Notes under the pieces: model-generated
Told to the model about the DNA's origin: nothing
The model's input: the letters and a program-made list of their open reading frames with translations, nothing else
Database searches by the model: none
Shown: in pieces, positions 1,305-20,519 of the stretch
Layout: each line of letters starts with the position of its first letter
Numbering within the stretch: the stretch's first letter is position 1
Virus record (IMG/VR): IMGVR_UViG_3300045910_000106
Coordinates: 1 to 20,519 of that record
DNA from: a virus
Length of the DNA stretch: 20,519 nucleotides
Direction: 5' to 3' (one strand)
Position numbers and translations under genes: made by a program

Positions 1305-1486
1305 CCGCAGACGGGCCCCCTCGGTGCGACTGCGTGAGGGTGACGATCAGGAGCATGGACCTCCAGTGGTGCGAGCCGTCGCTGCTGGATGTGCTCCGGG
1401 GCCCGGCTCCGGTGTGCTGGGCGTGGGGCCTGCCGGGCGGGAGCGGTGATGGCCAGGACAGCGACCGGGCACCGGGCCAGCCGTGA
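1301..1486 (+). CDS. Small cysteine-containing ORF of unknown function
   Basis: This 61-residue ORF starts with GTG 1301, overlapping the previous stop as GTGA, and its 3' end runs 38 bases into the terminase gene in another frame. It contains a PPRCDCVRV segment, two tryptophans (QWCEP and CWAWGLPGG) and a glycine- and aspartate-rich tail. No domain is recognised. The overlaps and phage-style packing support its being real, but codon evidence is weak in such GC-rich DNA, and it may be a spurious frame filling the gap before the HNH-terminase gene. Confidence 0.45.
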   Translation: MTADGPPRCDCVRVTIRSMDLQWCEPSLLDVLRGPAPVCWAWGLPGGSGDGQDSDRAPGQP

Positions 1487-3269
1487 CCAGCGGCGCCGCC
1501 GGCTAGCGATCGGGAGGGCGGCCGGGGAGCCGTGCTGCCGCTGCGGCCGGCCGATCGACTACGACATGGCGTGGGACCCGCGCGCCTACCAGCCGGGGTA
1601 CCCGAGTGTGGACCACCTCGACCCGCCCGGGCTGGGGGGCAGCGAGCTGGCGCCGATGGACCGGCTTGCTCCGGCGCACCTGGACTGCAACAGCAGGGCC
1701 GGCGCCCGGCTGGGCGCGGCGCTGAGGTCCGCGCGCCGCCGCGGCCCGAAGGTGAGCGACCCAACCGCGGAGGTGAGTGACACAAGCGCGGAGGTGAGTG
1801 ACCGGGGGCGCGTTCTTGGGGGCGGCTTGGCAGCCCCGGCTCGCCCCCTTCCACAAAAAAAGGCGGCCGGAACCCGCAGGAATCGGCCGATCCGGCCGAA
1901 GTTCCACCCGCACGGATTCGTGCTGCCCCGGATATGGCCCAAGAAGCTGCCCAGGGGCGATTACTCCATGGGGGACGCGTTCCTGGCCTGGTCGGACGGC
2001 AAGGAGTGCCCAGGGCCGCCTCTGACGCCGTGGGAGCGGCACTGGGCGCGGGAGCTGCTGGTCCGGGTGGACGGCCGGCAGCGGTACACCAGGGCCGTCC
2101 TACGGGTGGCCAGGCAGCAGGGCAAGACGTACGTGGTGCAGCGGGTGCTGCTGTGGCTGCTGGTGCACGGCCACGAGTGGCTCGGCGAGCCGCAGCGCAT
2201 CCTCAACACCCACTTCGACGGCATCCAGGCCGTGGGCCTGATGGAGCCGATGGCCAGGGCCTGCGGGTACGGCGCCAAGGGCCTTCCCGGCCTGAGGTCC
2301 CAGACCTACATGGCGGTATGGCACCCCGGCGGGGAGGAGGACGGCCTCGCCGCGGTGTGGATGGCCCGCGCGATGACCACCAACGCCCTGACCGGCAACC
2401 AGGGCATCACGGTCTCCTTCGTCGACGAGCTGCAGGACGCCAAGCGGCGGCAGGTGCAGGAAGGGCTCGGCGGGTCCATGTCCGGCGCCCGGATCGCGTG
2501 GCGGCTGCGGATCTACGCCGGCACCGGGGAGAAGGAGGACAGCGACCTGCTGCGCGAGCTGCGCAAAGCGATCGGCGACCCGTCGATGTTCTGGTCCGAG
2601 TGGTCCCTGCCTCCCGGCGCGGATCCCGATGACGAGGGCAACTGGCCGTGGGCGTCCCCGGACTGGTCGGACGCTCGCCTGGCCTACCTGCGGGAGGAGA
2701 AGGGCTCGATGCCGCTGGACGAGTTCCAGCGCAACTACCTGCTGCTCGACGGCCACCAGGTGCAGAACCCGGACGCGCTCGTCGCCGCCGACGTCTGGGA
2801 CGCGCTGCGGGCCCCGCAGCCGCAGCAGTGGGCCGCGGCCGCGGTCGAGGCCGGGCCCGGCGCATCCCCCGTCGTAGCCCTCGCAGCCCACGACCAGCAC
2901 ACCGGCGCAGCAGTCGTCTCGGCGCGCCGCGCATCCTCGACCGCGGAAGCGGTCCAGTGGTGCCAGCAGGCCGACGAGCCGCCGATCGTCGGCAAGAGCC
3001 TGCTCGCCGACCCGGCATGGGCGGCGGCGGCCGCGGTGCCGGCCACCGGCAGCGTCCCCGAGGCCTGCGGCCAGCTGCTCGCCCTGATCCGCGACGGAGT
3101 CCTGCGCCACGACGGCGGCGAGCTGCTGGCCGAGCAGGTCACCCGCACCACCGTGGAACACACCGCGGACGGGCTGCGCATCACCTCCAGGGGCCGCGTC
3201 GACGCCATCAAAGCCGCGGTCCGCGCCGTCCACGCCGCCCGACAGTCGCAGGACTGGTTCAGCTACTGA
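1449..3269 (+). CDS. Terminase large subunit with fused N-terminal HNH endonuclease
   Basis: This 606-residue protein starts at ATG 1449, five bases after a GGGAG Shine-Dalgarno. Residues 29-90 form an HNH nuclease: zinc cysteines C29 and C32, the DH pair at 55-56, and the H77-x2-C80-N81 end. Residues 101-121 are three 7-residue repeats starting VSD. The large terminase follows from about residue 150. Its Walker A is ARQQGKT (221-227, K226) and its Walker B is TVSFVDE (D326, E327). A C-terminal RNase H-like nuclease probably spans 470-600, where D482, D521 and D585 are candidate metal ligands but the classic first Asp is not clear. TerL pumps DNA into proheads, and HNH proteins assist cos cleavage in HK97-type phages; they are normally separate genes. 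The codons for Q136-K137-K138 contain the slippery heptamer A AAA AAG. Confidence 0.92.
   Translation: MARTATGHRASRDQRRRRLAIGRAAGEPCCRCGRPIDYDMAWDPRAYQPGYPSVDHLDPPGLGGSELAPMDRLAPAHLDCNSRAGARLGAALRSARRRGPKVSDPTAEVSDTSAEVSDRGRVLGGGLAAPARPLPQKKAAGTRRNRPIRPKFHPHGFVLPRIWPKKLPRGDYSMGDAFLAWSDGKECPGPPLTPWERHWARELLVRVDGRQRYTRAVLRVARQQGKTYVVQRVLLWLLVHGHEWLGEPQRILNTHFDGIQAVGLMEPMARACGYGAKGLPGLRSQTYMAVWHPGGEEDGLAAVWMARAMTTNALTGNQGITVSFVDELQDAKRRQVQEGLGGSMSGARIAWRLRIYAGTGEKEDSDLLRELRKAIGDPSMFWSEWSLPPGADPDDEGNWPWASPDWSDARLAYLREEKGSMPLDEFQRNYLLLDGHQVQNPDALVAADVWDALRAPQPQQWAAAAVEAGPGASPVVALAAHDQHTGAAVVSARRASSTAEAVQWCQQADEPPIVGKSLLADPAWAAAAAVPATGSVPEACGQLLALIRDGVLRHDGGELLAEQVTRTTVEHTADGLRITSRGRVDAIKAAVRAVHAARQSQDWFSY
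1756..1806 (+). repeat. Tandem 21-bp repeats in the HNH-terminase linker
   Basis: Three copies of a 21-bp unit with the core GGTGAGYGAC lie here, the third incomplete. They are in frame and encode three heptads beginning VSD. The second and third copies contain GGAGGTGA, a near-perfect Shine-Dalgarno sequence, so the repeats could either be only a flexible protein linker or help an internal start produce a terminase without the HNH part. Confidence 0.6.
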
Positions 3270-13226: not shown

Positions 13227-14087
13227 ATGCCCCCGGACGGCGCCTGGGCGGACCTGCGCGGCTACCTTGACTGGTTGGCCGCGCGGTTCAGCCCTCTCAC
13301 GGTGAGGCAGCGGACCTGGCAGCTGAACAGGTTCGCGGCCGCGCACCCCGCCGGCCCGTGGTCGGTCGACCTCGACCAGGTGGAGAAGTGGCTCGCCGCG
13401 CAGCACGCCGAGGCCTCCCGCCTCAGCGAGCTGTCCGCCCTGAAGCGGTTCTACGACTGGGCCCGCCGGCACGGCCGCTGCCCGGCATCATGGACGGACC
13501 CCACCGCCGACGTCCTGCCGATCCGGGTCCCCGACCCCGGCGTGCTGCCCTGCCCCCAGGACGCGTTCTGGGCGGCCGAGGACGCCGCCGACGAGGACAG
13601 CGAGCTGATGCTCCTGCTCGCTGCGCACTGCGGGCTGCGGTGCGCCGAGATCGCCGCCGTGAGCACCCGGGACGTGGTCGGCGACATGCTCCGGATCCGG
13701 GGCAAGTTCGGCAAGGTCCGGCTCGTCCCCCTGCCCAAGCAGATCGCCCAGCTGATGGGCGAGCGGCCGGCCGGGCAGCTGTTCCCCGGCCGCCTTCCCG
13801 GCACCTGCATCAAGCCCGGCACCGTCTCCGGCAGGCTCTCCCGGCTGCTGCCGGCCGGGTGGACCGCGCACACCCTGCGCCACGCCTACGCCACCAACGC
13901 CTACCTCGAGCTGCGCGACATAGTCGCCGTGCAGCAGCTGCTGGGCCACGCGTCCCCCGCCACCACGAGGCGGTACATCGCCGCAGCCAACGCCGCCGTC
14001 CTGCAATCGGCGGCAGGGGCGGCGACCCGGATGCCATCGCGTCGCCGACTGCGCATCGTCCCACCACCCCCCGACAGCGCCGCCTGA
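13227..14087 (+). CDS. Tyrosine recombinase (integrase), first copy
   Basis: This 286-residue protein starts at ATG 13227, 10 bases after the endolysin stop, with no clear ribosome site. Residues 1-100 form the SAM-like core-binding domain (LTVRQRTWQLNRFAAAH, then LSALKRFYDWARR). The catalytic domain from about residue 105 carries the full set: R138 in CGLRCAE, K163 in GKFGKVRL, H215-x2-R218 in AHTLRHA, H241 in LLGHAS and the nucleophile Y250 in RRYIAA. It cuts and rejoins DNA through a 3' phosphotyrosine, as XerC/D and phage integrases do. It is short and lacks an arm-binding domain. Its C terminus is a proline-rich tail ending DSAA. It is about 3.2 kb from attP. Having two integrases is unusual: this one may act at another site or resolve multimers. 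Confidence 0.9.
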   Translation: MPPDGAWADLRGYLDWLAARFSPLTVRQRTWQLNRFAAAHPAGPWSVDLDQVEKWLAAQHAEASRLSELSALKRFYDWARRHGRCPASWTDPTADVLPIRVPDPGVLPCPQDAFWAAEDAADEDSELMLLLAAHCGLRCAEIAAVSTRDVVGDMLRIRGKFGKVRLVPLPKQIAQLMGERPAGQLFPGRLPGTCIKPGTVSGRLSRLLPAGWTAHTLRHAYATNAYLELRDIVAVQQLLGHASPATTRRYIAAANAAVLQSAAGAATRMPSRRRLRIVPPPPDSAA

Positions 14088-14157
14088 CACCGCTAGTTCC
14101 AGACGAGATGAGCCAGGTCCCGGGACCGTGGGTCGGTATACCCGCAGGTATACCGAC
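14088..14157. repeat. Convergent intergenic with paired GGTATACC palindromes
   Basis: Between two converging genes stands a perfect 10-bp inverted repeat (14132-14141, GTCGGTATAC, with 14148-14157, GTATACCGAC) with a 6-base spacer. It includes two copies of the 8-bp palindrome GGTATACC (14135-14142 and 14147-14154) centred 12 bp apart. It could be a bidirectional terminator without a T run, or a two-site binding element. I see no other GGTATACC in the window. Confidence 0.6.
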
Positions 14158-14457
14158 TCAGCTCCACTTCGCGACCAACTCCGCGTGCCCGGCCAGCGCC
14201 TCAGTCTTGGTGGTGTACCGCCGCACGTCGAGTTCTGGCCCGACCCCGACCTCGGTCCGGGATGCGAACACCATCGTCTCGAAGATCAGCGGCGCGTCAT
14301 ATCGGCCCCAGCTGTGGTCGATCCCCAGCCACACCGTGGACACGAGGATGCCTTCGCGCACGGTCTCCTGCGCCAGCAGGCGGTCGCTCTCGAACCGCGC
14401 GAGCCACTCCAGCCGGTCGATGGGCTCCCCGTCCATCCCGTAGTACGGCAGGCTCAC
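14158..14457 (-). CDS. Conserved small actinobacterial phage/prophage protein, function unknown
   Basis: This 99-residue protein starts at GTG 14457, overlapping the upstream minus-strand stop as GTGA. The sequence follows a pattern I associate with a widespread actinobacterial family: YYGMDGEPIDRLEWLARFE, then REGILVSTVWLGIDHSWG, and PLIFETMVFASRT with a C-terminal YTTKTEALAGHAELVAKW. The predicted fold is a small alpha/beta domain with no membrane segment. The function of the family is unknown to me. It is the second gene of a two-gene minus-strand unit lying between the two integrases, and it converges on the first integrase. Confidence 0.82.
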   Translation of the reverse strand: MSLPYYGMDGEPIDRLEWLARFESDRLLAQETVREGILVSTVWLGIDHSWGRYDAPLIFETMVFASRTEVGVGPELDVRRYTTKTEALAGHAELVAKWS

Positions 14458-14684
14458 GGCCCGGCCGCCCGCCGCCGGAGCTCGCACGACGCGCACAGCG
14501 GCGACCCCGTCGGCCCGTAGCGCACCGTCGTCCGCCTGCACGACTGGCAGGGCCCGACTTCCACCATCACGGCACCCACCGCCAGAAGGTCCCCGGCCGG
14601 CCAGTCCTGGGGGGATGGACGGCGGCCGGCGCGGGGAGTCTGTGCGGCCCGCACGATGTGGGCCCGGTCGGACCCGTGCCCCAC
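14454..14684 (-). CDS. Small zinc-ribbon protein
   Basis: This 76-residue protein starts at GTG 14684; a GTG-ATG pair further in (before VEVGPCQSC) is a possible later start giving about 36 residues. The C-terminal half is a four-cysteine zinc ribbon, CQSC...CASC, in the order CxxC - 13 residues - CxxC. The N-terminal half is basic and rich in R and P, and it may not be translated if the later start is used. It is divergent from the second integrase, whose start is 84 bases away, so a shared promoter region is likely. Possible roles include DNA binding or an excision factor. No family is recognised. Confidence 0.6.
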   Translation of the reverse strand: MGHGSDRAHIVRAAQTPRAGRRPSPQDWPAGDLLAVGAVMVEVGPCQSCRRTTVRYGPTGSPLCASCELRRRAAGP

Positions 14685-14767
14685 GATTGATGGCGGGCCG
14701 GCCGGGAGCGGGAACTCCAGACCGGCCCTGACCCACCAATCCGATCAGTGCGGAAAGGGGGGCTGAC
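14685..14767. promoter_or_regulatory. Divergent intergenic region between the zinc-ribbon gene and the second integrase
   Basis: These 83 bases should contain promoters for both directions. A 7-bp inverted repeat (GGGCCGG at 14695-14701 with CCGGCCC at 14722-14728) is present. An A/G-rich GGAAAGGGGGG tract (14752-14762) is the integrase ribosome site. No clear -10 or -35 pair is seen. Confidence 0.4.
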
Positions 14768-15883
14768 GTGAGTCTGCCCGAAACCGATACCAGGATCATC
14801 GCCGGGTGGCTGCTGTCGCACCGCGGCGCCAAACCCGCCACCCTCGCCAATTACGGCAAGACCGCGCGGCTGGCGTGCGAGCACGGACTCGAACTGCTGA
14901 CCAGCACCGCGCGGGAAGTGGCCTGCGTCCTGGACGCCACGTGGCGCACCGACGCCGGCCGCGGCGCCGCGGGCCGGGTGCTGCGCCGCCTGTTCGCGTG
15001 GATGGTCTCCACCGGGCTGCGCGAGGACAACCCCGCACCCACCCGCACCGGCCGCGCCGGCTACGGCCCGATCCGCGACGAGCACGTCCCCGGGCCGTGG
15101 GCCCGGCCGCTGGCGGACTGGTACGCGTGGATGGTCGCCGCCGGTCGCGCCGCCGGCACCATCGAGTCCCGCCGCCGGTCCCTGACCGCGTTCGCCCGAG
15201 CCAACCCCGGCGGGCCCGCCGGTCTGGGACCGCAGCATGTCGTGGACTGGTTCGCCGCCCACCCGCGCTGGAAGCCGGCCACCCGCCGCCGGGAGCTGTG
15301 CGCGCTGGCCGCGTTCTGGGCGTGGGCGATCCAGTTCGGACGGGTCGAGAACGACCCCACCGGGGCGCTGGGCACCATCCGCGTCCCCAAGGGTGTGCCC
15401 CGCCCGATCGGCGACGCCCTGTTCGCGCAGGCCCTGGCCCGCGCCCAGGGGCCCGACCGGCTGATGCTGCTGCTCGCCGCGCACTCGGGGCTGCGCCGCG
15501 CCGAGATCGCCGCGGTCCGCCGCGAGGACGTCACCGACCACGGACTGGTCGTGACCGGCAAGGGCGGCCGCACCCGGCTCATCCCCCTCACCGGTCGGCT
15601 GCGCCGCGAGCTGCTCGACCGGCCGGACGGCTGGATCTTCCCCGGCCGCAGCGGCGGGCACCTGCGGCCCTGCACGGTCGGCGCGCACCTGACCGCGCTG
15701 ATGGACGGGAAGGGCACCGCGCACCAGTTGCGGCACAGGTTCGCGACCAAGGCGTGGGAGGGCACCCGTGATCTGCGGGCCGTGCAGCAGCTCCTGGGCC
15801 ACTCCAGCCCCGCCGTCACCGCGATCTACCTCGGCGTCGCCGACCAGGACCTCGTCCGCGCGGTCGAGGCCGCGGCCGCGTGA
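14768..15883 (+). CDS. int: Tyrosine recombinase (integrase), second copy, with extra N-terminal domain
   Basis: This 371-residue protein starts at GTG 14768 after a GAAAGGGG ribosome site. The catalytic domain (about 205-371) has R243 (SGLRRAE), K265 (TGKGG), H319-x2-R322 (AHQLRHRF), H345 (LLGHSS) and nucleophile Y354. Residues 105-200 form a core-binding domain resembling that of the first integrase. A further N-terminal module, residues 1-95 (LLSHRGAKPATLANYGKTARLA, then LRRLFAWMVSTGLREDNPA), reads like a second SAM-like core-binding domain and may bind arm sites. The C terminus is AVEAAAA, like an ssrA-type degradation end. It is the closer integrase to attP (17262-17296), so it is the more likely phage integrase. 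It probably promotes insertion at a tRNA-Arg gene. Confidence 0.92.
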   Translation: MSLPETDTRIIAGWLLSHRGAKPATLANYGKTARLACEHGLELLTSTAREVACVLDATWRTDAGRGAAGRVLRRLFAWMVSTGLREDNPAPTRTGRAGYGPIRDEHVPGPWARPLADWYAWMVAAGRAAGTIESRRRSLTAFARANPGGPAGLGPQHVVDWFAAHPRWKPATRRRELCALAAFWAWAIQFGRVENDPTGALGTIRVPKGVPRPIGDALFAQALARAQGPDRLMLLLAAHSGLRRAEIAAVRREDVTDHGLVVTGKGGRTRLIPLTGRLRRELLDRPDGWIFPGRSGGHLRPCTVGAHLTALMDGKGTAHQLRHRFATKAWEGTRDLRAVQQLLGHSSPAVTAIYLGVADQDLVRAVEAAAA

Positions 15884-16052
15884 GGACGGGCGCCCCGGGA
15901 CCGCGCGGGGGATCGCGGTCCCGGGGCGGTCCGAGCGCCGGGTCGCCCGAGAGCGAGACGGGCCCCGGCTGCCGGTGATAGCCCCCCATTCCAAGGGAAG
16001 GGCTCCGCGCTCCGCCGGCTGACGCGCCATCACGATCACAAGCCCGGCCTGG
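15884..16052. other. Convergent intergenic region with terminator
   Basis: No gene is seen. This stretch separates the second integrase from the converging five-gene minus-strand operon and contains the strong hairpin at 15891-15928. The rest of the sequence has no clear repeats. Confidence 0.5.
15891..15928. terminator. Perfect 15-bp hairpin, bidirectional terminator
   Basis: Arms 15891-15905 (CGCCCCGGGACCGCG) and 15914-15928 are perfectly complementary, with an 8-base loop. It begins 8 bases after the integrase stop and stands between convergent genes, so it can stop transcription from both sides. No T tract is present. Confidence 0.8.
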
Positions 16053-16409
16053 TCACCGCAGCGACCCCGACGGGACACCGCCGAGGCGGTGGCACGGGCA
16101 TCGGCACAGCACCGTCCCGCACCGGTCGGCGTGGCCCGCCCGGCACCAGACGGGCTGCTCCCGCAGGTCGATCACGTTCGGCAGGGACTCTTGCCACGCC
16201 ACCGCGCACGCGTACCCGCGGAGCATCGCCTCCTCAGCGGAGTCGCCGGGCCGCAGGCACCCGTCGACCAGCACCCCGATCCCCATCAGCAGCCCGCCGA
16301 GCATGCCTGACCGGTCGTCCCCTCCGCCGAGCACCTTCGCCGACCACACCGCCTCGCACAGAAGGTCGATCGCGGCGTCCCGGTCCGTCCTCGTCGCCTC
16401 CACCGTCAC
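16053..16409 (-). CDS. Cysteine-rich protein, last gene of the repressor operon
   Basis: This 118-residue protein starts at GTG 16409, overlapping the previous stop as GTGA. The first 95 residues are helical (DRDAAIDLLCEAVWSAKVLGG, then MLGGLLMGIGVLVDGCL), with a mildly hydrophobic central helix. The C-terminal end, WCRAGHADRCGTVLCRCPCH, has five cysteines and two histidines in a probable zinc knuckle. No family is recognised. It ends the operon that starts with the repressor (17503), and every junction in this operon is a 4-base overlap. Upon integration at attP it would lose the repressor promoter, so it may be needed before or independently of lysogeny. Confidence 0.72.
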   Translation of the reverse strand: MTVEATRTDRDAAIDLLCEAVWSAKVLGGGDDRSGMLGGLLMGIGVLVDGCLRPGDSAEEAMLRGYACAVAWQESLPNVIDLREQPVWCRAGHADRCGTVLCRCPCHRLGGVPSGSLR

Positions 16410-16576
16410 CACCTGTCCACACGCACAGGCTGGCAGCCGCGGGGGCAGGGCACCGGATGCCCGGCCGCCCGGCCGATGCAGAACACGGGCGACTCGCAGT
16501 GCGTGCAGCACGCGAACGCGGGCATCGGCCGCCATCCCGTCCCGGCCATCGGCTGAGCGGCCGCCTGCGCGGTCAC
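16406..16576 (-). CDS. Very small zinc-finger-like protein
   Basis: This 56-residue protein starts at GTG 16576 (GTGA overlap upstream, and another at its own stop). After a short N terminus it has FACCTHCESPVFC, then GHPVPCPRGC, giving a compact six-cysteine ribbon that could hold one or two zinc ions. Proteins this small with such ribbons are common in actinophages and often have no assigned function. Its reality is supported by the paired 4-base overlaps and the conserved-looking cysteine spacing. Confidence 0.68.
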   Translation of the reverse strand: MTAQAAAQPMAGTGWRPMPAFACCTHCESPVFCIGRAAGHPVPCPRGCQPVRVDRW

Positions 16577-16950
16577 TCCCTGTGGTCCGTGAGAGCGTCC
16601 AGCAGCGACTGCTTGCCATTCGTGTCCAGGCGCCAGTACTGCTGCTCCAGCTCCCCGCAGCACAGGGACCGCGCGAGGATCCAGGCGGCCCGCGCGCCGT
16701 TGGACGCCCCCGCCATCGCCTCCGCGAACAGCTCGCCGGTGTCGTCCTCGAAGAAGTCGAGGTATGCCCAGCACGCCTCGTCCCCCCGCCAGGTCACGTT
16801 GATCAGGGGATGCCCGGGCCGCAGCTGCCCAGCATCGCTGAGGAACTGTACGGCGGCCTGGTACGGCAGCAGGCCCGCGGACCAGGCATCGAGCAGCACC
16901 CGCAGCCGCTCCGCGTCCAGGCGACGGCCGATGTGCGCCGCGGTGCTCAT
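16573..16950 (-). CDS. Helical protein of unknown function in the repressor operon
   Basis: This 125-residue protein starts at ATG 16950, which overlaps the preceding stop as ATGA; a longer frame upstream to 17073 is only the shadow of the 93-residue gene. It is mainly helical with helices LDAERLRVLLDAWSAGLLPYQAAVQFL and EDDTGELFAEAMAGASNGARAAWILARSL. A tryptophan-rich middle (VTWRGDEACWAYLDFFEDD) separates them, and a last helix follows (EQQYWRLDTNGKQSLLDAL). No motifs, signal peptide or membrane segment are seen. Third gene of the operon that begins with the repressor. Confidence 0.75.
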   Translation of the reverse strand: MSTAAHIGRRLDAERLRVLLDAWSAGLLPYQAAVQFLSDAGQLRPGHPLINVTWRGDEACWAYLDFFEDDTGELFAEAMAGASNGARAAWILARSLCCGELEQQYWRLDTNGKQSLLDALTDHRE

Positions 16951-17228
16951 GCGGCGGCCATGTCGCGGACCAGGTCGCTGAGAAGCGCCGACAGGCAGCC
17001 GCAGTCCTCGCCCGAGTCGTGGTGCTCCCCGATGCAGCGGTCGTCCGGGCACCCGCACGAGTCCCCGGTCCATACCAGGCGCTTGTTCATGCCGTAGCCC
17101 CAGGAGCGCTCGCCGTCGTGGTGGCGGATGTACGCGGCGATGGTCAACGACTGGCCGGAAGGCAACAGCGTCCCCTTGATCTCCTCCCGCGCGGACTGGT
17201 CCAGGCCGCGGTACACGGGCCCGCTCAT
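16947..17228 (-). CDS. Cysteine-containing small protein directly downstream of the repressor
   Basis: This 93-residue protein starts at ATG 17228, overlapping the repressor stop (17225-17227) as ATGA. A beta-rich first half (YRGLDQSAREEIKGTLLP, then LTIAAYIRHHDGERSWGYG) leads to a cysteine cluster, DSCGCPDDRCIGEHHDSGEDCGC, with five cysteines and two histidines, a likely zinc site. The protein ends DMAAA. Its translation in the phage depends on coupling with the tail end of the long repressor form. Because attP lies in the repressor, integration separates this gene from the repressor promoter. No family is recognised. Confidence 0.75.
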   Translation of the reverse strand: MSGPVYRGLDQSAREEIKGTLLPSGQSLTIAAYIRHHDGERSWGYGMNKRLVWTGDSCGCPDDRCIGEHHDSGEDCGCLSALLSDLVRDMAAA

Positions 17229-17503
17229 GCCGCGGCCTCCGTCTCGGACTCGGAATCAGACCAGAAGGTTAGGGGTTCGAATCCCTTCGGGCGCGCTGGC
17301 CTCAACAGGCCGATATCAACCTTGAAGGCGTCGGCGTAGCGCACCATCGTCTCGAAGTCGGGGAGGTTGTCCCCCCGCAGGTGGCTGCGCACCGTGATAA
17401 CGGGGAGATCCATAATCTCCGCCAACTCTGCTGTCGTCAGGCCTGCCTCGTCGCGAGCGAAACGCATCCGATTCCCAACTGCTTTCTTGAACTCGATGAC
17501 CAT
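17225..17503 (-). CDS. XRE-type phage repressor with attP inside its 3' end
   Basis: This 92-residue protein starts at ATG 17503; TAGAGT at 17510-17515 fits a -10 element placed for a leaderless message. Residues 10-65 hold a Cro/CI-type helix-turn-helix (GLTTAELAEIMDLPVITVRSHL is the core). The C-terminal part ARPKGFEPLTFW (70-81) is encoded by tRNA-Arg-like DNA, and the end is WSDSESETEAAA, resembling an ssrA degradation tail. If the host has the usual T before the shared core, integration turns W81 into a stop and leaves an 80-residue form lacking the tail. In mycobacteriophage BPs such truncation makes the repressor stable and active. It is the first gene of a five-gene operon and divergent from the replication gene. 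Confidence 0.9.
   Translation of the reverse strand: MVIEFKKAVGNRMRFARDEAGLTTAELAEIMDLPVITVRSHLRGDNLPDFETMVRYADAFKVDIGLLRPARPKGFEPLTFWSDSESETEAAA
17262..17296 (+). other. attP core: 35-bp match to the 3' half of tRNA-Arg
   Basis: Reading on + from CAGAAGG (17262-17268), the segment has the tRNA T-arm: stem AGGGG, loop TTCGAAT, stem CCCTT, followed by the acceptor strand CGGGCGC and a discriminator base. Upstream there is no acceptor 5' strand or D-arm, so this is not a whole tRNA gene. It agrees with the 3' half of actinobacterial tRNA-Arg (ACG) as I remember it, the usual kind of attB for tyrosine integrases. It lies inside the repressor coding sequence. Confidence 0.85.
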
Positions 17504-17515: not shown

Positions 17516-17524
17516 GCAGATGGT

Positions 17525-17538
17525 CCGACAATCGTCGG
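17525..17538. promoter_or_regulatory. Dyad between repressor and rep genes
   Basis: CCGAC-AATC-GTCGG is a 5-bp inverted repeat with a 4-base spacer, centred about 19 bases upstream of the repressor -10. It may be an additional operator, for example for self-regulation. Confidence 0.45.
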
Positions 17539-17543
17539 TTCAT

Positions 17544-17578
17544 CTGGACGTTGGTGGCATCCGATCTGATACTGTCAC
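17544..17578 (+). promoter_or_regulatory. Promoter of the replication gene with overlapping operator
   Basis: CTGGAC (17544-17549) and GATACT (17568-17573) are spaced by 18 bases as -35 and -10. The -10 lies inside CTGATACTGTCAC (17566-17578). Read on the minus strand this is GTGACAGTATCAG, matching the perfect dyad at 18561-18573 in 11 of 13 positions. Repressor binding here would block rep transcription. Confidence 0.6.
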
Positions 17579-17631
17579 GGCCTATGACGCAACGTAGCGG
17601 TGCTGCCCCCCAAGGTGATCGGGAGGACCCC

Positions 17632-18543
17632 GTGGAACCCAGCGAAGTCGAGCCCATGAAGCCTGTGATGTGGAGGAACCTGGCTCTCGACGATGTCCGA
17701 CTGGGGGCCCGCGCCCGCCACATGCTGATGCACATCCAGGAGTTCGCCTGGAAGCACTCCAGGAAGCCGCACTACGGCGGCGGCGATTCGGCTCTCTGGG
17801 TCGCGATCAGGTACGACGACCTCGCCGATGCAGCCGGCGTCTGCCGTGACACGGCGAGACGTGGGATTGCCGACCTCATCGAGGCCGGCTGGCTTGAGAG
17901 GGATCCCCAGTTCCGGGGCGGGTGGCAGCGGCAGAACCACTACCGGTGGAAACGCCCAGATCAGCCGAATCTCGCGGTGCAAATTTCCACGCGATCTGCA
18001 CCGCGATCTGCACCGCGATCTGCACCGCGATCTGCACCGCGATCTGCACCGCGATCTGCACCGCGATCTGCACCGCGATCTGCACCGGCAAGTACTAAAG
18101 AGGAATTAGGAATTAGGAAGGGGGAAAGTCAAGTCAATGTCGGCGCGGAAGTTGAGATGGGCGGAGACCTTGACTTGACCGATTCGACGAGTGAGGCAAG
18201 AGCCTTCCTGATGGCGCTGGGCGCGATGGTGAGGCGCGACCTCGCCCCGAACGACTCGGCCATCAGCGCGGCCAAGCACGCGATCGGTATCGGCTACTCG
18301 GCAAGGACAGCCGTGAAGACCCTGGAGGGGATGGGCCACAACCTCACCAAGGCGAAGAGCGGCGGCATGGTCCTCCGGCTGCTCCGCGAGCTGCCCGCGG
18401 ATCCGGAGCTCGAATGGCGCAGCAAGCTCCCCGTCCAGTGCCCGCACGGCAACGAGGCGGCGAACCTGTGCAAGCCGTGCCGGCTCGACGCCGGCGACCC
18501 GCGCGAGATCGAGCGGGCGATCCGGGAAGGACTGGCATCCTGA
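17632..18543 (+). CDS. Winged-helix replication initiator with internal iteron origin
   Basis: This 303-residue protein starts at GTG 17632, placed five bases after GGAGG. ATG 17584 is an in-frame alternative (319 residues) for a leaderless message. Residues about 14-107 form a winged helix like phage and plasmid initiators (LGARARHMLMHIQEFAWKH, DDLADAAGVCRDTARRGIADLIEAGWL). Residues 121-152 are eight RSAP repeats encoded by 12-bp iterons. The C-terminal domain is helical (ARAFLMALGAMVRR, SARTAVKTLEGMGHNL) and ends with a zinc-like CPHGNEAANLCKPC. This is the plan of lambda O: DNA-binding domain, origin inside the gene, and a C-terminal part that may recruit the host helicase. No helicase, primase or polymerase is encoded here, so host enzymes are needed. 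The name is by analogy. Confidence 0.82.
   Translation: MEPSEVEPMKPVMWRNLALDDVRLGARARHMLMHIQEFAWKHSRKPHYGGGDSALWVAIRYDDLADAAGVCRDTARRGIADLIEAGWLERDPQFRGGWQRQNHYRWKRPDQPNLAVQISTRSAPRSAPRSAPRSAPRSAPRSAPRSAPRSAPASTKEELGIRKGESQVNVGAEVEMGGDLDLTDSTSEARAFLMALGAMVRRDLAPNDSAISAAKHAIGIGYSARTAVKTLEGMGHNLTKAKSGGMVLRLLRELPADPELEWRSKLPVQCPHGNEAANLCKPCRLDAGDPREIERAIREGLAS
17973..18135 (+). other. Probable replication origin: iterons plus AT-rich element
   Basis: An inverted partial iteron (CGCGGTGCA, 17973-17981) and AAATTT precede eight 12-bp iterons (17991-18086). An A-rich stretch at 18087-18135 follows, with the direct repeat GAATTAG twice, the most AT-rich stretch I notice in the window. This is the arrangement of lambda-like origins, with initiator sites next to a melting region inside the initiator gene. 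Confidence 0.75.
17991..18086 (+). repeat. Eight perfect 12-bp direct repeats (iterons)
   Basis: The unit GCGATCTGCACC is repeated eight times without a mismatch or spacer. The 12-bp length keeps the reading frame and codes for RSAP each time. There are no spacers, so this is not a CRISPR array. One repeat per helical turn (about 1.1 turns) suits stacked binding by an initiator. Confidence 0.92.
18128..18179. repeat. 10-bp inverted repeat next to the origin
   Basis: GTCAAGTCAA at 18128-18137 and TTGACTTGAC at 18170-18179 are perfect inverses, 32 bases apart, just after the AT-rich part of the origin. They could bind a dimeric protein or form a stem in the rep mRNA. The role is unknown. Confidence 0.5.
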
Positions 18544-18676: not shown

Positions 18677-19648
18677 ATGACCGAATCATCCGACCTGCCG
18701 GGCGATATCGTCCAACGCAACAGCCAGGCCGAAGCGATCTTCGACAACTGGAGGCTCGCGTACAGGCTGGATCCCTCCTTCCCGATCGAGAAGATCGAGG
18801 ACGGCGCCACGCAGCAGGTCCGCGACCAGGCCAACCGCGCCAACCGCCAGTACGTCGAGGAGTACTTCCAGCAGCACGAGGCGGGCGCTGTCTTCCCGCC
18901 GATCGTCCTGCGCGACACCAACTTCTCGCTGATCGACGGCAACACCCGGCGGGCCATGTGGATCAAGGCGAAGCGGCCCACGGTGCCCGTCTACCTGGTG
19001 AGCCTGCCGTCCGCAGACCTTGCCCGGGCCCTTGGGGCACAGCTGAACCAGATCGCGGGTGTTCGGCTCACGCCGGACGAGTCAGCCAGGCAGGCGCTGG
19101 CGATGATGGAGGAGGGCACGTTCGACGACCAGCAGATCGCGAGGATCGTGGGCCGCTCCCGTACGCAGATCACCCGCTGGCGCCAGGAGCGGGAGTTCAC
19201 CGCGCGCGCCGAGCGGTGCGGCGTCTCCGACATGGCGAAGCGGGTACCCGACGCGCAGCGCCGCATCCTGTCGAAGGTCGTCCAGGTGAAGCCGTTCACC
19301 GAGCTGACCAGGCTGGCCGGATCCCGGAAGGTGCAGAACAGCGACCTGAACGCCCTGGTCGACAAGGTGCTCGCCGCGGAGAGCGAGGAGGCAGCGCTCG
19401 ACGCGGTCACGATCGCAGGAGCCGAGATGCACCCGATAGGCCCGGACGGGCGCGCCGTCGCATCGAACCCGAAGGCGAAGCGGATGCGCATGGTGCTGCC
19501 GCAGGTGCTCAACCTCGCCCCGGCGGAGGAGTTCTACGAGCCCGAGAAGGCGGTGGCCGACCGGGCGATGTGGCTGCAGATCAAGATCGCTGCGGAGAGC
19601 GCCCTGGCCATGTACGAGCGCTACGACGCCCCGGGGAGCGCGGCATGA
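18677..19648 (+). CDS. ParB-like DNA-binding protein (ParB/Srx domain plus HTH)
   Basis: This 323-residue protein starts at ATG 18677 with AAGGAG 8 bases upstream. Residues 35-110 form a ParB/sulfiredoxin-like domain (FPPIVLRDTNFSLIDGNTRR, then VPVYLV), with DGNTRR at 87-92 in the place of the ParB GxxR nucleotide-binding motif. Residues 148-172 are an HTH (FDDQQIARIVGRSRTQITRW), and the rest is helical and charged. Chromosomal and plasmid ParB proteins need ParA, which is absent from this genome, so partition is doubtful; a phage regulator, replication helper or nuclease is more likely. A 13-bp-arm inverted repeat in the next gene (19881-19915) is a candidate binding site. It overlaps the next gene by ATGA. 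Confidence 0.88.
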   Translation: MTESSDLPGDIVQRNSQAEAIFDNWRLAYRLDPSFPIEKIEDGATQQVRDQANRANRQYVEEYFQQHEAGAVFPPIVLRDTNFSLIDGNTRRAMWIKAKRPTVPVYLVSLPSADLARALGAQLNQIAGVRLTPDESARQALAMMEEGTFDDQQIARIVGRSRTQITRWRQEREFTARAERCGVSDMAKRVPDAQRRILSKVVQVKPFTELTRLAGSRKVQNSDLNALVDKVLAAESEEAALDAVTIAGAEMHPIGPDGRAVASNPKAKRMRMVLPQVLNLAPAEEFYEPEKAVADRAMWLQIKIAAESALAMYERYDAPGSAA

Positions 19649-20295: not shown

Positions 20296-20519
20296 GTGAG
20301 GGATCTGTACGGCACGGGCGCGTACAACGTTGGTGTGGAGCTGCGGGTTTATCAGAAGCCGGGGCTGTTGGTGCGCCTGGCTTATCAAACGGCGCCGGTG
20401 CACGTTGGTGCCATGGACGTGGATGTGCCGCTGGATTCGTTCCACAGCGATGGGACGACGACCCTGATCGACCCGGTGGCGGGTATCGGGCTGTGGCGGG
20501 AGGCGCGGCGGGTACGCGA
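20296..20519 (+). CDS. 5' part of the split early gene, continues at window base 1
   Basis: The frame opens after the TGA at 20275-20277; the first likely start is GTG 20296 (RDLYGTGAYNVGVELRVYQ), with GTG 20335 as a weaker option. From 20349 on, the sequence repeats bases 1-171 and the reading frame stays the same, so the protein continues to 424 on the circular molecule. The single mismatch at 20475 changes CCT to CCG, both proline. No Shine-Dalgarno is visible, so the start is uncertain. Confidence 0.65.
   Translation, partial: MRDLYGTGAYNVGVELRVYQKPGLLVRLAYQTAPVHVGAMDVDVPLDSFHSDGTTTLIDPVAGIGLWREARRVR
20349..20519. repeat. 171-bp terminal repeat marking a circular genome
   Basis: This segment matches bases 1-171 in 170 of 171 positions. 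Together with the gene running across the junction, it indicates a circular or circularly permuted genome of about 20,348 bp rather than two separate copies. Confidence 0.9.

What the first reader, a model, noticed from the sequence alone, without database searches (positions are those of the whole stretch)
17225..17503. Integration-dependent immunity switch: attP within the repressor gene
Seen: a 35-bp tRNA-Arg-like core (17262-17296) lies in the repressor coding region, and the free-phage protein is 92 residues ending in EAAA. Known: in mycobacteriophages such as BPs, attP inside the repressor means integration removes an ssrA-like tail and yields a stable repressor; BPs also uses a tRNA-Arg. 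Inference: if the host tRNA has T before CAGAAGG, the codon TGG for W81 (17261-17263) becomes TGA, giving an 80-residue lysogenic repressor that ends exactly at the core boundary. A whole switch of this kind in a 20-kb phage, with a one-base difference setting the stop, appears new for this genome.
Basis: partly seen in the sequence, partly recalled or inferred. Interest (0 to 1): 0.92.

Follow-up and report, generated by a model that had tools for sequence, protein, structure and literature searches.

The report
BPs-type integration-dependent immunity switch variant
This small actinobacterial phage places its chromosome-insertion site inside its repressor gene, so that inserting into a host tRNA gene turns one codon into a stop and should yield the lasting repressor; this trick is already known from mycobacteriophage BPs, and only the placement and number of the integrase genes is unusual here.

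Summary
The 92-residue HTH repressor (17225-17503, -) carries 35 bp (17262-17296) identical to the 3' part of actinobacterial tRNA-Arg(ACG). The conditional step also holds. Of 297 actinomycete genomes sampled, 30 carry the core, always with T before it and never A, C or G. Joining such a host to the window restores the tRNA and gives an 80-residue repressor ending ...RPKGFEPLTF*. A natural lysogen (Jiangella muralis) shows both products: TGA at attL, and at attR a remnant with TGG and a tail ending AVA.

The novelty claim fails. BPs has the same tRNA-Arg, a 35-bp core, and a published one-base change (Cys TGT to TGA) at the same position. UmaThurman and prophiGD43A-5 even share the TGG codon. 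Gordonia phages of about 17 kb already have the system.

What differs is the layout. In the 12 reference phages read, the integrase lies directly downstream of the repressor on the same strand. Here two paralogous tyrosine integrases lie on the opposite strand, and a small-gene operon follows the repressor. The degron is plausible but weak on its own: 7 of 23 window genes end in AA. Protein stability and immunity are untested.

The parts
17225..17503 (-). Repressor, free-phage form, 92 aa, HTH_3 domain at residues 14-66, ends SETEAAA
17306..17464 (-). DNA-binding HTH domain (residues 14-66), entirely upstream of the att core
   Evidence: Pfam HTH_3; still found in the 80-aa form
17262..17296 (.). 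attP common core, 35 bp, identical to tRNA-Arg(ACG) from position 40 to just past the 3' end
17261..17263 (-). Switch codon W81 TGG; becomes TGA when host T (tRNA position 39) replaces C17261
17225..17260 (-). Rest of the C-terminal extension after the switch codon (SDSESETEAAA plus stop), lost on integration; candidate ssrA-like degron
17225..17228 (-). ATGA overlap: repressor stop and start of the next leftward gene
16947..17228 (-). 93-aa gene downstream of the repressor, no family match; would be cut from the repressor promoter by integration
16573..16950 (-). 125-aa gene, no family match, coupled to the preceding gene by ATGA
16053..16409 (-). Likely small leftward gene (start uncertain), no family match
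   Evidence: GC by codon position
14768..15883 (+). Tyrosine integrase 2 (371 aa, GTG start), ends VEAAAA; 41-43% identical to Barebow and Rahul integrases, 38% to BPs-type
13227..14087 (+). Tyrosine integrase 1 (286 aa), ends PDSAA; 41% identical to integrase 2, about 40% to Gordonia CW-type integrases
17518..17545 (.). Candidate operator: 28-bp dyad AGATGGTCCGACAATCGTCGGTTCATCT between the repressor and the divergent replication gene
   Evidence: 10 of 12 pairs; 36 of 2000 shuffles of the 80-bp region have as good a dyad
17584..18543 (+). Divergent early gene, replication initiation (O-like) protein, the likely target of repression
   Evidence: PHROG 270, 9.8e-9

Best explanation
The element is an integration-dependent immunity switch that works like that of mycobacteriophage BPs. 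Shown: the free phage encodes a 92-residue HTH repressor whose gene contains the attP core; the core equals the 3' part of host tRNA-Arg(ACG); hosts with that core always have T next to it; recombination anywhere within the core restores the tRNA and converts TGG (W81) into TGA, giving an 80-residue repressor with the HTH domain intact and the 12-residue tail removed. Inferred: one of the two tyrosine integrases carries out the recombination; the tail (ending EAAA) marks the free-phage repressor for proteolysis; the 80-residue form is stable, binds the repressor/replication-gene intergenic region, shuts off early genes and confers immunity. Unlike the canonical layout, the integrases are not in the repressor operon, so integration should cut a set of small unknown genes, not the integrase, from the repressor promoter.
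For: Exact core and tRNA identity. T before the core in 30/297 genomes, other bases in 0/297. In-silico attL with 107 host loci always gives the same 80-aa protein, and in the five examined ARAGORN finds tRNA-Arg(acg) at attB and attL but not attP. Natural lysogen in Jiangella muralis: attL repressor ends GFEPLTF*, attR remnant reads GLEPLTFWLGA...RFSRAVA*. Two more proviruses have HTH repressors ending exactly RPKGFEPLTF*. Repressors of named phages with the same core in frame: Bipper, Typha, UmaThurman, Angel, Barebow; with a related core, Coeur and Rahul. Both window integrases group with integrases of phages that have attP in the repressor, not with three outgroup integrases. Repressors of 11 such phages end in AA in 7 cases against 2 of 127 other genes. 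Published mechanism for BPs (PMC4557955; PMC9262239).
Against: No lysogen or close relative of this phage was found. No experiment shows that the 92-aa form is unstable or the 80-aa form active. C-terminal AA is common in this genome (7 of 23 genes), 4 of them through GCATGA start-stop overlaps, the repressor included. The integrases end 1.4 kb and 3.2 kb from attP on the other strand. No sigma-70-like promoter was found in the intergenic region.
Confidence: 0.82

Rival explanations
1. attP lies in the repressor and integration truncates it, but the tail is not a degron: both forms are active, and the -AA end only reflects the GCATGA overlap with the next gene. The architecture would then serve to restore the tRNA or to uncouple the downstream operon.
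For: 7 of 23 window genes end in AA, 4 by GCATGA overlap including the repressor. The tail is short and acidic and shares only AA with classical ssrA tags (own knowledge).
Against: Across 11 phages with attP in the repressor, repressors end in AA far more often than other genes, 7/11 vs 2/127. In BPs the tail is shown to cause degradation and A135E stabilises it (PMC4557955).
Confidence: 0.13
2. The core is a remnant of a past att site or a tRNA gene fragment. The present integrases act elsewhere or serve genome resolution, and the repressor is an ordinary one of 92 residues.
For: Integrases are not next to attP and are on the other strand. There are two of them and no arm-type sites were recognised.
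Against: The core is 35/35 identical to living host tRNA genes, so it is under current selection or very recent. Both integrases belong with those that use attP-in-repressor sites. Arm sites are not needed in such systems (PMC9262239). The frame stays open only because the base at tRNA position 39 differs from the host.
Confidence: 0.05

Closest known systems
Mycobacteriophage BPs / Angel (cluster G) integration-dependent immunity, repressor gp33 (136 to 103 residues)
   Same: Same kind of host tRNA (tRNA-Arg), 35-bp core, same reading frame (GFEPPTF before the stop), same third-base change to TGA at the core edge, HTH repressor, BPs-like tyrosine integrase (38% identity).
   Different: Switch codon is Cys TGT there and Trp TGG here; tail is 33 residues there and 12 here; in Angel the integrase is directly downstream of the repressor on the same strand, here two integrases lie on the opposite strand.
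Gordonia phage UmaThurman and M. abscessus prophage prophiGD43A-5
   Same: 36 bases identical around the core, including the C that makes TGG; the remnant in prophiGD43A-5 ends EADAA.
   Different: Genomes of 50-77 kb; integrase next to the repressor on the same strand; the UmaThurman tail is longer and ends IPA.
Small Gordonia and Curtobacterium phages Coeur, Rahul, Emperor, GMA5, McGonagall, Barebow (16-18 kb)
   Same: Small genome with a complete attP-in-repressor switch; their integrases are among the closest to both of the window's.
   Different: Single integrase downstream of the repressor; several use another tRNA (tRNA-Lys for GMA5 and McGonagall per PMC5559632); three read the core in another frame.
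22-kb prophage of Jiangella muralis
   Same: Lysogen with the same core; attL repressor ends GFEPLTF* and the attR remnant starts with TGG and ends AVA; integrase 39% identical to window integrase 2.
   Different: Repressor sequence not closely related beyond an HTH; single integrase in canonical position.
Gordonia phages with two integrases (Bowser, Howe)
   Same: Two integrases in one genome.
   Different: In Bowser no attP could be found (PMC5559632); there the two integrases are not described as sister paralogues.

Membership tests
Integration-dependent immunity system (BPs type) | attP common core lies inside the repressor coding sequence | tested here: met
Integration-dependent immunity system (BPs type) | attB overlaps a host tRNA gene that is restored at attL | tested here: met
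   in silico, host of this phage unknown
Integration-dependent immunity system (BPs type) | Host sequence at the junction introduces a stop that shortens the repressor | tested here: met
   In silico with 107 hosts; T in 30/30 genomes with the core; natural example in a relative
Integration-dependent immunity system (BPs type) | Free-phage repressor ends in an ssrA-like tag (-AA) | tested here: inconclusive
   Ends EAAA, but 7 of 23 genes in the window end in AA; family-wide enrichment 7/11 vs 2/127
Integration-dependent immunity system (BPs type) | Repressor and integrase cotranscribed in one operon | tested here: not met
   Both integrases are on the + strand, the repressor on the - strand; 12 of 12 reference phages have the canonical order
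Integration-dependent immunity system (BPs type) | Integrase is a tyrosine recombinase of the kind found in these phages, with a C-terminal tag | tested here: met
   ends SAA and AAAA; the tag function itself is not testable here
Integration-dependent immunity system (BPs type) | Long form degraded and inactive, short form stable and immune | not testable with these tools
   Needs expression and superinfection assays

The most novel reading that the evidence does not exclude
A rewired integration-dependent switch: the integrase function, split between two paralogous tyrosine recombinases, has left the repressor operon and is controlled on its own, while integration severs a set of small unknown genes from the repressor promoter, so that the lysogeny decision and excision no longer follow the BPs logic of one shared rep-int transcript.
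Probability: 0.3. Interest if true: 0.5.

Novelty: new variant of a known kind. Interest (0 to 1): 0.33.

Why it matters
It extends the BPs-type switch to a 20-kb phage lineage with no close relative in the collections searched, and it is a natural test of which parts of that switch are essential. The att core, frame and stop are kept exactly, while the rep-int operon, thought central to the lysogeny decision, is not. The family-wide counts (T at tRNA position 39 in all sampled hosts with the core; repressor ends in AA in 7/11 against 2/127) also support the general model.

Tried and rejected
Close relatives of the repressor and integrase 2 in IMG/VR: none. Integrase 2 in 85k genomes: none. 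Relatives of the portal and capsid exist at 24-46% identity but carry neither the repressor nor the integrases in the DNA held. The only relative of integrase 1 found in IMG/VR was distant (26%). Sigma-70 promoters and intrinsic terminators near the switch: none. Rfam: none. The tRNA-Pro call at 1649-1742 lies inside the terminase ORF and is probably false. The dyad at 14129-14160 was considered as a recombination site because it can be read as 11-6-11; it sits between convergent gene ends and is more simply a two-way terminator. Corynebacterium phage Poushou matches the core outside any annotated gene and was left out. BPs itself is not in the phage collection under two accessions tried; its near relative Angel was used.

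Full report
Observation. The window is a virus record of 20,519 bases whose first and last 171 bases match with one mismatch, so it looks like a circular, free genome of about 20.35 kb with attP intact. The ORF 17225-17503 (-) encodes 92 residues with an HTH_3 domain at residues 14-66. The 35 bases 17262-17296 match exactly in six other virus records. In one of them (L005) the sequence to the left completes a tRNA-Arg(ACG) gene.

The conditional step. I tested this without assuming T: of 297 genomes drawn from the class of Jiangella, 30 hold the core preceded by T and none holds it preceded by A, C or G. The reason is visible in the tRNA: that base is position 39, the first base of the 3' strand of the anticodon stem, and pairs with A31 (inference from the sequence). 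Joining 107 of these hosts to the window in silico always gives the same 80-residue protein ending RPKGFEPLTF. In the five cases checked, ARAGORN finds tRNA-Arg(acg) at attB and at the repressor-bearing junction and none at attP. The HTH domain is intact in the 80-residue form.

Natural lysogens. In Jiangella muralis a prophage lies between a perfect core (227182-227217 of contig 5) and a core with one mismatch (204682-204713). The first junction holds a full tRNA-Arg and a repressor ending GFEPLTF*. The second holds the remnant GLEPLTFWLGA...RFSRAVA*, with TGG at the switch codon. Two further proviruses (L005, L006) have HTH repressors ending exactly at that TGA; L007 matches the Jiangella prophage itself. 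The predicted switch therefore exists in nature in related systems, though no lysogen of this phage was found.

Known kind. The closest repressors and cores in named phages are immunity repressors. Angel, a near relative of BPs, has a 136-residue repressor whose 33-residue tail begins with Cys (TGT) right after GFEPPTF, which fits the published 136/103 pair (PMC4557955). [quoted passage not shown] UmaThurman and prophiGD43A-5 have the same TGG codon as the window. Integration-dependent immunity in 17-kb Gordonia phages is published (PMC5559632), and I read the att core inside the repressor directly in Coeur, Rahul, Emperor, GMA5, McGonagall and Barebow. The claim of a new one-base switch, or of a new small-phage switch, does not stand.

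The tag. In 11 phages with attP in the repressor, 7 repressors and 5 of 11 integrases end in AA, against 2 of 127 other genes nearby. This supports the tag across the family. In the window itself the signal is weaker: 7 of 23 likely genes end in AA, and in four of these, the repressor included, the last codon is part of GCATGA, where the stop overlaps the next start. The tail SDSESETEAAA may be a degron, but sequence alone does not settle it.

What is different. In the 12 reference phages read, the integrase follows the repressor on the same strand. In the window the repressor is followed, through an ATGA overlap, by small leftward genes without family matches. Two tyrosine integrases lie on the other strand at 13227-14087 and 14768-15883. 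They are 41% identical to each other and pair in a tree with moderate support (93/94) among integrases of phages with attP in the repressor. Since cotranscription of repressor and integrase is listed as a feature of the system (PMC9262239), this is a variant rather than a standard member. By inference, integration would not separate the integrases from their own promoter but would cut the small genes from the repressor promoter.

Regulatory region. Between the repressor and the divergent O-like replication gene lies a 28-bp dyad at 17518-17545. Dyads as good occur in 36 of 2000 shuffles of the region, so it is a fair but unproven operator.

Verdict. The remaining interest is the uncoupled, doubled integrase.

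Noticed in passing
17990-18140: Eight perfect tandem copies of a 12-bp unit (CGCGATCTGCAC) inside the O-like replication gene, followed by an A+T-rich stretch; looks like iterons of a lambda-type origin lying within the initiator gene.
   Followed up: partly
1389-3269: Large terminase ORF of 626 aa whose N-terminal part (residues 20-116) matches HNH endonuclease families, so it looks like an HNH-terminase fusion.
   Followed up: no
13227-15883: Two paralogous tyrosine integrases separated by leftward ORFs (stops at 14158 and 14454), each followed by a strong dyad (14129-14160, 15896-15923) that probably ends transcription.
   Followed up: partly
18677-19648: ParB-like protein (PHROG 1033, 5.9e-9) in the early region; could mean partition or a nuclease/regulator role.
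   Followed up: no
1-171 and 20349-20519: Near-identical ends (171 bases, one mismatch at base 127), so the record is probably a circular genome with one ambiguous base.
   Followed up: partly
L164 2501-2541: Corynebacterium phage Poushou carries a tRNA-Arg-like stretch including the host-side CTACGGAT outside any annotated gene.
   Followed up: no
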